From an uncultured Planctomycetaceae bacterium (GTDB lineage Bacteria; Planctomycetota; Planctomycetia; Pirellulales; UBA1268): 64,000 bases of DNA. The position numbers and the translations under genes are program-made. Shown here in pieces: positions 52,112-58,794 of the stretch (position 1 is its first letter; each line of letters opens with the position of its first letter). The DNA is taken from positions 1 through 64,000 of the forward strand of contig CAISJI010000022.1 in NCBI GenBank assembly GCA_903885565.1, read 5' to 3'. Below the pieces are notes generated by a model that was not told the origin of the DNA, made no database searches, and worked only from the letters and a program-made list of their open reading frames with translations.

Positions 52112-53074
52112 TCAGCCGAAACATTGTGCGTCAGTTGAACGAAACCAGTCCACAAACTCGCGGATCCCCTGCTCGAACGGCACCCGGGCCTCGTATCCGA
52201 GCACGGCCTGGGATTTGTCAGGATCGGCGAATGTGAGCGGCACGTCGCCGGGCTGCGGGGGCAGGTGCTCGATCACCGCCCGACGGCCCATCGCCTCCTC
52301 GATGCTGCGAATCAGGTCAATCGTGGCGATGGTGCGGCCGCTGCCGATGTTGAACACATCCCACGGGCTTGCATGGTCTAAGGCGGCGAGAATGCCGCGG
52401 ACGGTGTCCGAGACATGCGTGTAGTCGCGGGCCGCCGAACCGTCGCCGTAGAGAGGCACGGGCCGGCCGGCGGCAATGCTCGAGGTGAATGTCGACACAG
52501 CCAGGTCTGGCCGTTGCCTGGGGCCATACACCGTGAACAACCTCACGCACTGCACCTGCAATCCATGCAGCGAGTGAAAGAGGTGGCACATGTCCTCCGC
52601 GGCCGCCTTGGTGCCCGCGTATGGAGATTCCGGCCGGGGGAGTGGATCGTCCTCTCGGAACGGCACCCGGTTGCTGGCTCCATAGACAGAACTCGACGAT
52701 GCGAAAACGACCTTGTGCACCTGGGCCATTCTCGCCGCCTCCAGGACATTGATCGTTCCACCAATGTTCACGGCACAATACAGTGAGGGCGACTGGATGG
52801 AGGCTCGCACTCCGGGGCGGGCGGCCAAGTGAACGACAGCGTCGGGCCTCGACCTCAGAAAGATCTCCGTGAGCCGCTCCGCGTCGCAGATGTCGGCTTC
52901 GATAAACTCCGCAGCCCCATGCCGCAGGACCTCCTGAAGATTCTTCTCCTTCAGTTCTCTGGGGTAGAACGGATCGAGGCTGTCGAGACAGCAGACCTGG
53001 TCTCCCCGCAGTTGGATGCTCTCGCTGAGATGCGAGCCGATGAACCCCGCGGCGCCGGTGACCAGAACTTTCAT
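52112..53074 (-). CDS. NAD-dependent epimerase/dehydratase (UDP-glucuronate 4-epimerase-like)
   Basis: MKVLVTGAAGFIGSHLSESI, VVHLAARPGVRASI, SPYAGTKAAAE, FTVYGPRQRPD. Confidence 0.93.
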   Translation of the reverse strand: MKVLVTGAAGFIGSHLSESIQLRGDQVCCLDSLDPFYPRELKEKNLQEVLRHGAAEFIEADICDAERLTEIFLRSRPDAVVHLAARPGVRASIQSPSLYCAVNIGGTINVLEAARMAQVHKVVFASSSSVYGASNRVPFREDDPLPRPESPYAGTKAAAEDMCHLFHSLHGLQVQCVRLFTVYGPRQRPDLAVSTFTSSIAAGRPVPLYGDGSAARDYTHVSDTVRGILAALDHASPWDVFNIGSGRTIATIDLIRSIEEAMGRRAVIEHLPPQPGDVPLTFADPDKSQAVLGYEARVPFEQGIREFVDWFRSTDAQCFG

Positions 53075-53231
53075 AAAATGTCTGGCCGGACTTGCGGAGT
53101 GTTTGGCGGTGGTCGATGCTGGTGCCTGCCCGGCACTCATCGAAAGTGTAATGTGGCCGCGGCGAGACACCAGACTCCGGGCCAGCGGGGATCCTCTGGT
53201 TGAGCATCAGCAGCAGGAAGCGGTCAACGTC

Positions 53232-53852
53232 ATGTGCGGAATCTGCGGCTTGGTCTGGTTTGACCCCGCCAAGCCGGTGGACGCCTGCATGGTGGACCGG
53301 ATGATGTCCACGCTGGTGCACCGGGGGCCCAACCGCCTGTGGCCGTCGCAGTCGCTCAGAAAGCTGCGGCTGCCGGCCTGGCTCCTGATGGCATCGCTGC
53401 GAGATCAACTCTTCGACGACTCGGTCTACGCCACGATCGAACCAGACTTCAGGGCTTCACGCGAGGCGCTGCTCGCCACCTACGACCGGCTACGACCGCA
53501 ACTGGAGCCTTTGTCGCCGATCAATGCCTACTTCGCGGGGCTCGCGGCCAGCATCCCGCCCTATCTCCGGTGCGCCGGCGGCACGCCAAAGCATATCTTC
53601 CGTGAGGAGATTCGGGGGAAACTGCCGCCTTTCATCATGGCGCACCCCAAACGCGGCTTCGGCATGCCACCCTCCTACCACAACGTCCAATCGTGGCACG
53701 ATGCCATCGCCCGGTTACGCCGGGAGAACCCGCTGCTGGAGAGCATGATCGACTTCGGCGGCCAGTCGTGCTGGAGCGGCGGCCTCAGCTGGCATGTTCT
53801 CTATCTGGGCACGTGGTTGGCTCACCGATCCGGAGCGTCGTTGCCATGCTGA
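53232..53852 (+). pseudogene. asnB: Internally deleted asparagine synthase (glutamine-hydrolysing)
   Basis: MCGICGLVWFD...TLVHRGPN directly joined to C-terminal-like KHIFREEIRGKLPPFIMAHPKRGFGMPP; 206 aa versus roughly 600 for the family. Confidence 0.8.
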
Positions 53853-54991
53853 TGACGGGCAGTTCCATGCAGAACCAGAATGCCAAGGCAGAGCGACGAC
53901 CGCTGATCTATGTCTATCAACTGCCTCCCCATCTGAACGTGGAGACAGTGCAACGCCATCCCTCGCAGAGTCTCGACTTCTGGTATGTGGAGCATCTGTT
54001 TCACCAGAATGTGCTGACGAGCGATTTCGTAACCCTTGATCCGGAAGACGCCGATTTCTTTCTCATCCCGTTCTATCCCGCCTGCTACTTTGCGGCCTTT
54101 GCCTACGATCGCGGGATCAATCCTGCGCGATGGACGCGTCTCCAGCGGTATCGCTCCGAACTGCACGTTCATCTTGGATTTCGCGAGATGATGCGGATCG
54201 TGCGGTCACAGCCGACGTGGAAAAGGCTGGAGGGGCGGCGCCACCTGCTCGTCTTTGGGCAGGGGCGTGGGGCGAACAGCGGGTATTTCTGGCGGTGGTA
54301 CGGTCCGCAGGTGCGTCGCTGCACGTTCCTTGGAGTGGAGGCGCGTCCTTGGGGAGACCCGACCTCCTTTCGGATCGGTCATGACGCAGTGATTCCGGGA
54401 TACACCCCCTGGCAGGACGTCATCGACGAATTGACTGCTGAAAACCTGCCGCGGGACATCCTCATCCACTTTCGGGGCCGGTCGTGGGGAGCGGTACGAC
54501 CGGAAATTTTCCGGCATCTCCGGCCGGCGCCGGAGATCGTGCTGGACGAGGCAGTACGGTTCGCCCTTGGCGGAGAGAATCGCCGCGCATCGCGGGCGGA
54601 TGCCGTGGAGTATTTCCGCGAACTCCATCGCAGCGTGTTCTGTCTGTGCCCGGCCGGGTGGACGCCATGGAGCAAGCGGATCTACGAGACGATTCTGTGC
54701 GGCGCGATCCCCGTATTCATTCCTGGCTCGTTCGTTCCACCATTCCCCGGGCAGATCGATTTTGAGAGGTTTTCCGTGACGGTGACGATGGACCAACTGC
54801 CCCATCTCGAGCAGATCCTGCGGTCCATTCCCGCCGAGCGAGTGAAGGAAATGCTCGCGGAGGTTGGCCGTGTCCGACGGCACTTCATCTGGCACGCGCA
54901 GACGCTTCCGGGCGACGCCTTCGACACCGTCGTGCGGGGCCTCTCTGGTGGCCCGGCGGCGAACATGCAGGACGGGCCGCGCTTGCAATGA
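53846..54991 (+). CDS. Exostosin-family glycosyltransferase
   Basis: PLIYVYQLPPHLN, ADFFLIPFYPACYF, FCLCPAGWTPWSKRIYETILCGAIPVFIPGSFVPPF. Confidence 0.88.
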   Translation: MLMTGSSMQNQNAKAERRPLIYVYQLPPHLNVETVQRHPSQSLDFWYVEHLFHQNVLTSDFVTLDPEDADFFLIPFYPACYFAAFAYDRGINPARWTRLQRYRSELHVHLGFREMMRIVRSQPTWKRLEGRRHLLVFGQGRGANSGYFWRWYGPQVRRCTFLGVEARPWGDPTSFRIGHDAVIPGYTPWQDVIDELTAENLPRDILIHFRGRSWGAVRPEIFRHLRPAPEIVLDEAVRFALGGENRRASRADAVEYFRELHRSVFCLCPAGWTPWSKRIYETILCGAIPVFIPGSFVPPFPGQIDFERFSVTVTMDQLPHLEQILRSIPAERVKEMLAEVGRVRRHFIWHAQTLPGDAFDTVVRGLSGGPAANMQDGPRLQ

Positions 54992-55065
54992 GTCTGCACG
55001 AGACCTTGGAGCTGAAATTGATCGATATCCCGCAGCTCGTCGACAAGATCGTTTCATGCCGTTAG
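54988..55065 (+). other. 25-codon mini-ORF overlapping the exostosin stop and the next glycosyltransferase start
   Basis: MSLHETLELKLIDIPQLVDKIVSCR*; ATGA overlap at 54988..54991; next ATG at 55056. Confidence 0.4.
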
Positions 55066-56104
55066 ACCGACCACTCCGGTTGCTGAAAGTTGTGCCCTAT
55101 CCGGTGATTCCTGACAGCGCCGGGGGGAAGATCCGGGGCGTGCAATTGTCGCGGGCGCTGGCCCGCGCCGGCGTCGATGTCACGATCCTCACCCCGTGGC
55201 ATCCGCGGCAGAAACCGTCTCTTTACGAGCATGAGCCGTTTCGGCTGCGGCAGGTGCCCTATCCCTTTGTCCTGCCACTGCTTTTCACCGACCGGCCGCT
55301 GCCCTACCAGTATTTGTCGTCGTTTCATCCAGGGCTGGGCTGGCTGGCCGCCTCTTCACTGCGCGGATGCGACATCTATCACTTCGAGCATCCCCAGTTT
55401 GCGTCGCTGGCCCGCCGGCTGCCGGCAGCCGCGAACGTCATGTACGGCTCGCATATTTTCGAGCATGACTACGTGGTGCAGGAGTGCCGGAGCGAATGGG
55501 CGGCGCGGGTGGCGAAAGCCCGCGTGTTTACGTTGGAGAGGTCGCTTCTCGAGCGAAGTCAGCACGTCTTCGCCGTGTCGCAGGCGGACAAAGAACGGTT
55601 CGCGGAGTTGTATCCGGTGGACGCGGGGAAGATCACCGTGGCTCCCAATGGGATTGCCGATCTGCGGCCGTTGGGCACCGATCAGACGCGGGTCCTGTAA
55701 CGATTTCCGCAGATCGCGTCCTATGCATCCCGGGCGGTCTGTAGCGGCAGCGACGTGGAGCACAATCGCGCCGCCGTGAGGTTTATCCTCGATGAACTGG
55801 CCCCACTCCGGCCCGACGCCGCTTTCGTCGTCCACGGCTCCTGCGGTCGGCAGTTCACCGGCATCGGCCTGGCGCCGAACGTGTTCGTCGACACAGATCC
55901 GTTCCGGTTCGATGACTATGCGGTGACCGGATTCGTGGGCATCAACCCGGTGACAACGGGCGGCGGCACGAACCTGAAGGTGCAGCACTCCCTGAGCCGT
56001 GGCCTGCCGGTGGTATCGACGCCGTTCGGCATGCGCGGGCACGAAGACTTCCGGCGTGCGGTGACCGTGTGCGAACTGGCGGATTTCTCTGACGCACTGA
56101 AAAA
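55056..56104 (+). pseudogene. Glycosyltransferase family 4 gene with in-frame TAA (55698..55700)
   Basis: PYPVIPDSAGGKIRGVQLSRALARAGVDVTIL ... VAPNGIADLRP..., stop, then same frame RFPQIASYASRAVCSGSDVEHNRAAVRFILDELAP...TTGGGTNLKVQHSLSRGLPVVSTPFGMRG. Confidence 0.85.
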
Positions 56105-56250
56105 CCCTGTGGCGAGACTGATGCCCGCGCAGCTGAAAGAGCTGATGCGGCACGAGTCGATCGAGACGACTCTCCGCTTCTACGTGGGCACCGACGCTCA
56201 AACGAAAGCCGACGCGGCTTGGGCTGCATATGAGCGGGCCACAGCGCCAG
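56105..56250 (+). pseudogene. C-terminal remnant of a tyrosine recombinase/integrase
   Basis: LMPAQLKELMRHESIETTLRFYVGTDAQTKADAAWAAYE resembles integrase C-terminus (H-I-TT-YY region); no upstream catalytic domain. Confidence 0.7.
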
Positions 56251-56362: not shown

Positions 56363-56436
56363 TGGGGCTGCTGGGACTCGAACCCAGGACCAACGGATTA
56401 AAAGTCCGATGCTCTAACCAACTGAGCTACAGCCCC
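56363..56436 (-). tRNA. tRNA-Lys (TTT)
   Basis: GGGGCTG acceptor pairs with CAGCCCC; GCTC-AGTTGGTTA-GAGC D arm; CTTTTAA anticodon loop; CTGGG-TTCGAGT-CCCAG T arm. Confidence 0.97.
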
Positions 56437-56772: not shown

Positions 56773-57666
56773 ATGAAACTTTTCTACTCACCCGATTACG
56801 TCGCCAGCGGTGTCTCGTTCGAAACGCTGCAGAAACCAGCCTGGATTGCGGAGTCTCTCAGCCGCTCTCCGATTGATGGAGTGGCAATTGAGGAGCCTGA
56901 GTCGCTTTCCATCGGCACCGTTGAAGAGACGCACGATCCGATCTACGTCAGCGCCATTGAGGCCGGTGAGCCGGGGTGTCTGGCAGAGTCGCAGGGCTTC
57001 CGCTGGGACGCATCGCTGCTGGCGGCGGTTCTGGCCAGCAACGGCGGCGTCGTGGCGGCAGCGAAGCAGGCCCTGCAGACCGGACGCAACGCTGGATGCC
57101 TCTCCAGCGGGCTGCACCATGCTCGCCGGGAAAAGGGCTGCGGTTTCTGCACATTCAACGGACTTGTCATCGCCGCCCGTGAGGCACTTCATGCCGGTGC
57201 GGAACGGGTGCTGATTCTCGACTTCGACGCCCACTGCGGCGGCGGAACGGCGTCGCTCATCAAAGGCGATCCACGCCTCGTGCAGCGGGATGTTTCGGTC
57301 GACCGTTTCGACCACTACGCTCCGCAGGCGAACGCACATCTTCAGGTAGTGACGCAGGCGGCCGACTGGCTCCCGGCAATCTGCCGACAATTGGACGAGT
57401 CAGGAGACTTTGACCTCTGCCTCTACAACGCTGGGGTCGATCCGTTTGAGGACGATGAGGGGGGCGGACTGCGGGGGATCACCCGCGAACACCTGATCAA
57501 GCGGGAGGCACTCGTATTCGACTGGGCCAGATCGCGCACGCTGCCGGTGGCGTTCGTGATGGCAGGCGGATACCTCAGCAAAAAGAACGACCGAGCACAG
57601 TTGGTGGCACTCCACAGAATCACAGTCCGCGTGGCGGCGGTGACGAGTCAGGCATCACATACTTGA
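56773..57666 (+). CDS. Histone deacetylase-superfamily (acetoin utilisation/acetylpolyamine amidohydrolase-like) protein
   Basis: GLHHARREKGCGFCTFNGL, LDFDAHCGGGTASL, YNAGVDPFEDDEGGGL, FVMAGGYLS. Confidence 0.88.
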   Translation: MKLFYSPDYVASGVSFETLQKPAWIAESLSRSPIDGVAIEEPESLSIGTVEETHDPIYVSAIEAGEPGCLAESQGFRWDASLLAAVLASNGGVVAAAKQALQTGRNAGCLSSGLHHARREKGCGFCTFNGLVIAAREALHAGAERVLILDFDAHCGGGTASLIKGDPRLVQRDVSVDRFDHYAPQANAHLQVVTQAADWLPAICRQLDESGDFDLCLYNAGVDPFEDDEGGGLRGITREHLIKREALVFDWARSRTLPVAFVMAGGYLSKKNDRAQLVALHRITVRVAAVTSQASHT

Positions 57667-57675
57667 GAGGAACAG

Positions 57676-58176
57676 ATGATCCATTTCACTCTGTCAGTTG
57701 AGAACCTTCCCTGCGTCTGCCGTGCCACGACCGCCGACATTGAGCGGGCCATCGAAAGCCTGCGATCGCCGACGGGGCCGACCTACATCAACCTCACCGG
57801 CCCAGATGGGTCGTATGCTCAGGCGGGAGGAACCAACGGCCGCTACGTGATCGAGTCGCGCGACGTGTACGGCGAGGGATTCCTGCACTGGCGGGCGGGC
57901 GTGCCGTCCGACAGTCAGGAGAAGACCTCCGTCTACTTCTACGCCAAATGCAGCCGTGGCCTTCACCGGCCGCGGAGCTGCCCCTATAAGATCGACGCAG
58001 CAGACGTGCTGGGCTGGGAGAACGTGAAGGAAGCCCTGCTGCATTACGCCGCTACTGGCGAGCGGCATCGAGGGTATTCGTGGAGAGATGTGTCGAGCGA
58101 GTATCCGTGTACAGCGAAGCACGATTCTATCAAAGAGTTTGTTCCGGCAAGCAGACAGGCGACTGACGCAAGATGA
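57676..58176 (+). CDS. Uncharacterised protein, paralogue 1 (166 aa)
   Basis: Shares GPTY/F..L, RDVYGEGF.HW.AG, CP, YPW/YSWRDVS with the next gene; 10 bp after the HDAC-like stop. Confidence 0.8.
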   Translation: MIHFTLSVENLPCVCRATTADIERAIESLRSPTGPTYINLTGPDGSYAQAGGTNGRYVIESRDVYGEGFLHWRAGVPSDSQEKTSVYFYAKCSRGLHRPRSCPYKIDAADVLGWENVKEALLHYAATGERHRGYSWRDVSSEYPCTAKHDSIKEFVPASRQATDAR

Positions 58177-58293
58177 TAATCATGATTGGAAAACCGGGCG
58201 ATGCGTTTGCAGATTTCCCCAGCCTGCCAACCACGACGGCAGACGGTGGCAAACCAGCCGCGCCCACACTTATTTCTGATACGGAGACCTCAC

Positions 58294-58794
58294 ATGCCCG
58301 GTTTCACGCTCGAACTTGAAGAATGCCCTCATCAGCTATTCGCAACCGCAGCCGACGTCGAACGAGCATTACGCATGATGGCCAAGCCTCGGGGGCCGAC
58401 GTTCGTCATGCTCAAAAAGCCATGTGGTGGATTGGCGAAGGCGTGTGGTTTCAACGACCGCTTTTGCGTCGAGACTCGTGATGTTTATGGCGAGGGTTTC
58501 AGGCACTGGCTTGCTGGTTTGCCCAACGTGAAGGACAGGTCTGATGTGGTGATGCACTTTCGCAACCATTGCGCTGTCCACGGTAAGCGGCGGTGCCCAC
58601 TTCCGGCATGGGGGGAAAACGTGCTCACCCTTTCTGACGTGCGGGCTATCCTGCTGTTTTACCAAGCCTCAGGCGAACGCCTCGGCAGCTATCCTTGGGA
58701 GGATGTATCTCAGTACTGCCTTGACGCCGCGCTCAAAGGAGACAGCAGATTCATTCGGGAAATTCGGCCGCAGGGGGCTGATCGGCGCCGCTGA
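58294..58794 (+). CDS. Uncharacterised protein, paralogue 2 (166 aa)
   Basis: MPGFTLELEECPHQLFATAADVERALRMMAKPRGPTFVMLKKP...VETRDVYGEGFRHWLAGLP...SGERLGSYPWEDVSQYC. Confidence 0.8.
   Translation: MPGFTLELEECPHQLFATAADVERALRMMAKPRGPTFVMLKKPCGGLAKACGFNDRFCVETRDVYGEGFRHWLAGLPNVKDRSDVVMHFRNHCAVHGKRRCPLPAWGENVLTLSDVRAILLFYQASGERLGSYPWEDVSQYCLDAALKGDSRFIREIRPQGADRRR

What the first reader, a model, noticed from the sequence alone, without database searches (positions are those of the whole stretch)
56773..58794. HDAC-like deacetylase followed by two equal-length paralogues of an unrecognised family beside tRNA-Lys
The HDAC-superfamily gene keeps its His-His, D-x-H and GGY motifs. Ten bp later starts a 166-aa protein, followed by a second 166-aa protein. 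They align through GPT(Y/F)..L, (V)ES/ETRDVYGEGF.HW.AG, RxCP and (S)GER..(S)Y.W(R/E)DVS but are strongly diverged. They have many conserved Cys/His/Trp positions. Location next to a tRNA with an integrase remnant points to an accessory module. Inference: possible enzyme plus immunity/modifier or sensor pair, a candidate undescribed system.
Basis: partly seen in the sequence, partly recalled or inferred. Interest (0 to 1): 0.62.

Follow-up and report, generated by a model that had tools for sequence, protein, structure and literature searches.

The report
Orphan immunity-like pair beside phage-type deacetylase
In a freshwater planctomycete genome, two sister genes that probably make antidote proteins against toxins from rival bacteria lie next to a deacetylase enzyme of a type otherwise seen mainly in phages; the two parts appear to be neighbours by chance, not one new system.

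Summary
The three genes are real and exactly where reported. The "unrecognised" pair is recognisable. Paralogue A gives a weak, below-cut-off match to Pfam Imm1 (E 0.0079), and four of ten family members do so independently. AlphaFold models of both paralogues (pLDDT about 84) have one confident PDB match each: DddI, the immunity protein of the DNA-deaminase toxin DddA (6u08; TM 0.73-0.75 over DddI). I read them as orphan, Imm1/DddI-fold immunity-type proteins of a planctomycete subfamily carrying an extra C-x(2-4)-H-x4-C-P hairpin. The family is patchy (7 of 72 genomes of the bacterial family) with variable neighbours; one distant relative is an integron cassette. Paralogue B is under purifying selection (dN/dS about 0.2).

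The deacetylase keeps its zinc-site motifs but belongs to a separate HDAC subfamily found in 52 viral contigs and only sporadically in planctomycetes (7 of 397 genomes of the order). None of its eight other planctomycete copies or the viral copies has an Imm1-like gene in the flanks I could read, so the proposed deacetylase-plus-immunity system is not supported. The integrase remnant lies on the far side of tRNA-Lys. No cognate toxin was found; the immunity function is inferred, not shown.

The parts
56773..57666 (+). HDAC-fold deacetylase/amidohydrolase, 297 aa, phage-type subfamily (signature D-x-D-A-H-C-G-G-G-T)
   Evidence: Pfam PF00850 E 1.6e-29; closest phage homologue Rhodococcus phage E3 gp202, 51.6%; tree groups it with 51 viral proteins, 100/100, away from the common planctomycete HDAC
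57115..57120 (+). active-site His-His (H115-H116)
   Evidence: motif LHHA at 114; aligned with bacterial HDAC 9gkv
57220..57246 (+). D150-F-D152-A-H154-C-G-G-G: zinc-ligand motif and subfamily signature
   Evidence: same motif in all 7 near planctomycete and 51 viral homologues (the viral set was fetched partly with this motif)
57439..57441 (+). D223, predicted third zinc ligand
   Evidence: AGVD at 220-223, aligned with AGVD of 9gkv
57565..57573 (+). GGY 265-267, predicted catalytic Tyr loop
57676..58176 (+). paralogue A, 166 aa, Imm1/DddI-fold orphan immunity-type protein
   Evidence: AlphaFold pLDDT 83.9; top PDB match DddI 6u08, E 8e-4, prob 1.00; Pfam Imm1 E 0.0079, below cut-off
57949..57984 (+). 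C92-x4-H97-x4-C102-P103 hairpin of paralogue A, absent from the distant homologues
   Evidence: alignments A1 and A2
58294..58794 (+). paralogue B, 166 aa, same family
   Evidence: 40% identical to A; AlphaFold pLDDT 84.6; top PDB match DddI 6u08, TMt 0.75, prob 1.00, E 0.016; dN/dS about 0.2 against its G010 homologue
58570..58599 (+). C93-x2-H96-x4-C101-P102 hairpin of paralogue B
   Evidence: alignment and the DNA
56363..56436 (-). tRNA-Lys(TTT); its 3' end faces away from the three genes
   Evidence: ARAGORN
56106..56240 (+). 45-residue integrase-like tail (H-x-S-I-E-T-T...Y), probable remnant
   Evidence: motif read by eye; no Pfam match; no similar sequence in other loci

Best explanation
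The two 166-aa proteins are orphan immunity-type proteins with the Imm1/DddI fold. Each is expected to bind one variant of a toxin injected or secreted by competing bacteria, most likely a deaminase- or nuclease-type toxin tip, and block its active site. The tandem copies have diverged to cover different toxin variants, as in polyimmunity loci. The upstream gene is a separate, horizontally spread HDAC-fold amidohydrolase of a subfamily common in phages. It probably removes acyl groups from a small amine or a lysine and may share a transcript with paralogue A, but is not part of the same mechanism. Shown here: ORFs, homology between the pair, fold match, distribution, lack of conserved linkage, and purifying selection on B. 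Inferred: toxin binding, the kind of toxin, co-transcription, and the substrate of the deacetylase.
For: Two AlphaFold models, one per paralogue, both pick DddI of 6u08 as the top PDB match with probability 1.00, and unrelated matches are far weaker. Pfam Imm1 is matched weakly, over nearly its full length, by paralogue A and by four of ten members. Sporadic distribution: 7 of 72 genomes of the bacterial family and 9 of 397 of the order. Changing neighbours: HD-domain gene in G025, nitroreductase-like gene in G010, penicillin-acylase-like gene in G029 and G030. A distant relative is a cassette between attC-like sites in an integron. A plasmid relative in Agrobacterium carries the domain as the C-terminal half of a 288-aa two-part protein. 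Purifying selection on B. The HDAC is linked to neither paralogue elsewhere.
Against: No toxin gene is adjacent. A DddA-like (PF14428) search of nine genomes found nothing, but its controls were silent too. The Rhs toxin cluster of the same genome carries no Imm1-like gene. Pfam Imm1 is never reached above its cut-off. The conserved Cys/His hairpin is not a listed Imm1 feature and could mean another role. The two AlphaFold models share one alignment, so they are not fully independent. Purifying selection on B is less typical of fast-evolving immunity proteins, though only one pair could be measured.
Confidence: 0.62

Rival explanations
1. The pair has the Imm1/DddI fold but a different job, for example a small metal-binding regulator or ligand sensor using the conserved Cys-His-Cys hairpin.
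For: C-x(2-4)-H-x4-C-P is kept in all eight closer members and is missing in the distant ones. Conserved G, E and W positions could form a binding site. No toxin partner found.
Against: The closest known structure is an immunity protein, and patchy, mobile distribution fits immunity genes.
Confidence: 0.22
2. Deacetylase plus two partners is one functional system (for example enzyme with immunity/modifier or a defence module).
For: 9-bp gap, same strand, likely shared transcript. Both gene types are sporadic accessory genes.
Against: None of eight other planctomycete deacetylase loci and none of 52 viral loci has an Imm1-like gene in the flanks held. G029 has both gene types on different contigs. 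No PADLOC match.
Confidence: 0.07
3. The three genes are cargo left by a phage or satellite inserted near tRNA-Lys; the pair would be phage cargo genes.
For: The deacetylase groups with phage proteins; integrase-like tail next to the tRNA.
Against: No Imm1-like gene in viral contigs, no viral structural match, no repeat of the tRNA end in the window, and the integrase tail is on the other side of the tRNA.
Confidence: 0.09

Closest known systems
Imm1 immunity family (Pfam PF14430; Zhang et al. 2012, PMC3482391)
   Same: alpha+beta small protein, conserved aromatic/W near the C-terminus, weak near-full-length profile match, known in planctomycetes
   Different: score below the family cut-off; extra Cys-His-Cys hairpin; no neighbouring deaminase toxin
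DddI, immunity protein of the dsDNA cytidine deaminase DddA (PDB 6u08)
   Same: top structural match for both paralogues, TM 0.73-0.75 normalised to DddI
   Different: only 9-12% sequence identity; orphan, tandem, longer by about 40 residues
Homogeneous polyimmunity loci (PMC3482391)
   Same: tandem diverged paralogues of one immunity-type protein without a toxin
   Different: only two copies; most other genomes have one copy
Rhodococcus phage E3 gp202, putative histone deacetylase
   Same: 51.6% identical to the window deacetylase, same subfamily in the tree (L084)
   Different: phage genome near tail-fibre genes; no Imm1-like neighbour
Bacterial HDAC 9gkv and viral acetylpolyamine amidohydrolases (PMC9992855)
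   Same: HDAC fold and zinc-site motifs
   Different: only partial similarity (best solved relative E 2.4e-31); the paper's viral enzymes are from giant viruses, not phages

Membership tests
Imm1 (PF14430) | profile score above the curated cut-off (22.4 bits) | tested here: not met
   17.4 bits for paralogue A, none for B; best of ten members E 0.0022; no genome match over cut-off
Imm1 (PF14430) | alpha+beta fold of a solved relative (DddI) | tested here: met
   Foldseek top hit 6u08 immunity chains for both models, prob 1.00
Imm1 (PF14430) | aromatic residue and W near the C-terminus | tested here: met
   W136 of A nearly invariant; feature as listed in PMC3482391
Imm1 (PF14430) | gene next to a deaminase (SCP1.201/DddA-like) toxin | tested here: not met
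   none adjacent in the window; PF14428 found in none of nine genomes, but controls silent
Imm1 (PF14430) | neutralises a toxin by binding it | not testable with these tools
   needs binding and rescue assays
HDAC superfamily (PF00850) | profile score above cut-off and zinc-site residues | tested here: met
   103.7 bits against 27.9; HH, DxH, D and GGY kept
Enzyme-plus-immunity system of deacetylase and pair | conserved gene linkage | tested here: not met
   0 of 8 other planctomycete and 0 of 52 viral deacetylase loci, within the flanks held
Known anti-phage defence system | PADLOC model match | tested here: not met
   no match for any of the three
Integron gene cassette | attC site flanking the gene | tested here: not met
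   no attC-like site between the window genes, while the same scan recovers sites in four integron loci; the distant G188 relative does meet it

The most novel reading that the evidence does not exclude
A planctomycete branch of the DddI/Imm1 fold, marked by a C-x(2-4)-H-x4-C-P hairpin, spreads as toxin-less immunity genes and protects aquatic bacteria against a toxin type not yet described; next to it, a phage-type HDAC subfamily (D-x-D-A-H-C-G-G-G-T) acts on an unknown substrate during infection or in hosts that captured it.
Probability: 0.3. Interest if true: 0.5.

Novelty: new variant of a known kind. Interest (0 to 1): 0.34.

Why it matters
It puts a fold-level name on proteins that sequence searches leave blank, and suggests that freshwater planctomycetes carry toxin-less antidote genes, in one relative as an integron cassette. 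The deacetylase leads to a subfamily in dozens of phage contigs with a fixed active-site signature and no known substrate, which is directly testable.

Tried and rejected
Integron-cassette origin of the window genes: the pattern scan recovers sites in known arrays but none at the window genes; a first scan with strict core-site motifs found nothing even in true arrays and was replaced. Viral origin of the pair: no relatives in IMG/VR or among viral structures. Known defence or phage family: none. PDB sequence-profile search for the pair: no match. Toxin search: PF14428 absent, uninformative because controls were silent. Rhs cluster in the own genome: no Imm1-like gene. First single-protein scan of the genome collection found no relatives; a second with a close alignment found three contigs already known from whole-genome searches. 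Island bracketed by a tRNA repeat: no copy of the tRNA end in the window.

Full report
Observation. The three open reading frames are present exactly as reported: a 297-aa protein at 56773-57666, and two 166-aa proteins at 57676-58176 and 58294-58794. The first is an HDAC-superfamily protein (Pfam Hist_deacetyl, E 1.6e-29). The two small proteins share 40% identity over their whole length (E 2e-38), so they are true paralogues; the own genome holds no third copy. The window lies in a 4.46-Mb, 279-contig genome; the nearest titled relatives of the pair are uncultured Planctomycetaceae genomes. tRNA-Lys lies upstream on the minus strand at 56363-56436.

What the pair is. Pfam gives paralogue A a weak match to Imm1, the immunity family linked to SCP1.201/DddA-type deaminase toxins (17.4 bits against a cut-off of 22.4, E 0.0079, over nearly the whole profile; family description). 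I collected relatives from 72 genomes of the bacterial family (7 with a hit) and 397 of the order (9 with a hit), read their true frames and aligned them. Four of ten members match Imm1 on their own. AlphaFold models, one per paralogue, reach mean pLDDT 83.9 and 84.6. Foldseek against the PDB puts the immunity chains of 6u08, the DddA-DddI complex, on top for both, with probability 1.00 and TM-scores of 0.73-0.75 normalised to DddI. The E-value is modest for B (0.016), and sequence identity is only 9-12%, so this is a fold-level assignment. The core family adds a C-x(2-4)-H-x4-C-P hairpin, kept in all eight closer members and missing in the two distant ones.

Distribution and context. Relatives are scattered, and neighbours change: an HD-domain gene in G025 (Pfam HD_4), and, named from their sequence by eye, a nitroreductase-like gene in G010 and a penicillin-acylase-like gene in G029 and G030; G044 has a DUF6538-like integrase arm fragment. 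Paralogue B has a 72-76% identical counterpart in another genus, without A or the deacetylase on its 5.6-kb contig, with dN/dS about 0.2, so it is a maintained protein gene and not tied to A. A distant relative in G188 sits in an integron array: 91-94-base hairpin sites with AAC...GTT core ends follow the genes, an IntI integrase lies at the end of another contig that shares the same repeats, and the gene ends inside such a site. The same scan finds no such site at the window genes. A plasmid of Agrobacterium rubi encodes the domain as the C-terminal half of a larger protein.

The deacetylase. Its best hit in a named phage is Rhodococcus phage E3 gp202 at 51.6% identity, and 52 IMG/VR contigs carry relatives. 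A maximum-likelihood tree separates the window protein, six planctomycete relatives and 51 viral proteins from the common planctomycete HDAC by a long, fully supported branch (100/100); cellular relatives outside planctomycetes were not sampled. All of these carry D-[FL]-D-A-H-C-G-G-G-T, while the one common planctomycete HDAC that the motif search could read has D-L-D-V-H-Q-G-N-G-T. The viral set was fetched with patterns that include this motif, so its fixation there is partly built in, but the planctomycete set was found by whole-protein search. In many of the viral contigs the gene lies among what look like primase, single-strand-binding, helicase or ribonucleotide-reductase genes (read by eye). 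In planctomycetes it is rare: 7 of 397 genomes of the order and 3 of 392 sampled over the phylum, the window genome counted in both. Zinc-site residues are intact. The substrate is unknown; a survey of viral polyamine enzymes found acetylpolyamine amidohydrolases only in giant viruses (PMC9992855).

Are they one system? Of eight other planctomycete loci of this deacetylase subfamily and 52 viral loci, none has an Imm1-like gene in the flanking DNA held. Several flanks are short because contigs are short, but G205 gives 14 kb. G029 has both gene types, on different contigs. The 9-bp spacing may still mean a shared transcript here. The integrase tail (56106-56240) lies on the 3' side of tRNA-Lys, the usual side of insertion, while the three genes lie on its 5' side, and no repeat of the tRNA end was found in the window, so it does not mark them as one island.

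Mechanism. The best reading is that A and B are orphan immunity-type proteins that bind an incoming toxin and cover its active site, as immunity proteins commonly do (general description in PMC7901873). Tandem duplication followed by divergence would broaden the set of toxins covered, as proposed for polyimmunity loci (PMC3482391). Binding, toxin identity and protection are inferred. No DddA-like domain was found in nine genomes, but the controls were silent too, so absence is not shown. The own genome has an Rhs cluster with three cores, so polymorphic toxins probably exist there, but without an Imm1-like gene beside them.

Verdict. Real genes, a recognisable fold for the supposedly unknown pair, no support for a deacetylase-linked system. 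By rule the pair is not filed as Imm1, since the profile cut-off is not met; it most likely works like Imm1/DddI. Moderate-to-low interest, raised a little by the hairpin subfamily and the phage-type deacetylase.

Noticed in passing
window 56773-57666; L084-L135: A phage-associated HDAC-like subfamily with D-x-D-A-H-C-G-G-G-T signature, in dozens of viral contigs among replication and nucleotide genes; substrate unknown.
   Followed up: partly
L053, L056, L057 (own genome contig C137), L018/L052: Integron arrays with clear attC-like sites in several planctomycete relatives and in the window's own genome, where IntI seems reduced to a fragment.
   Followed up: partly
window 54864-56117: A glycosyltransferase split into two frames (family-4 N-terminal half, then a C-terminal half) that runs into the integrase-like tail; looks like a broken gene.
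   Followed up: no
window 53016-53852: ORF containing MCGICGLV (asparagine-synthetase-like amidotransferase start) joined to what looks like its far C-terminal part; probably an internally deleted remnant.
   Followed up: no
L080 (own genome contig C52): Rhs-type polymorphic toxin cluster with three cores and different tips, one lipase-like by eye.
   Followed up: partly
L060 522-1004 and L011 2494-2769: Similar integrase N-terminal arm fragments (DUF6538-like) beside a deacetylase of the same subfamily in G020 and beside an Imm1-like gene in G044.
   Followed up: partly
L090, L102, L116, L118, L120, L123, L124, L127, L131-L133: A dual-specificity-phosphatase-like gene recurs near the viral deacetylase, in ten of these eleven loci about 0.5 kb upstream.
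   Followed up: no
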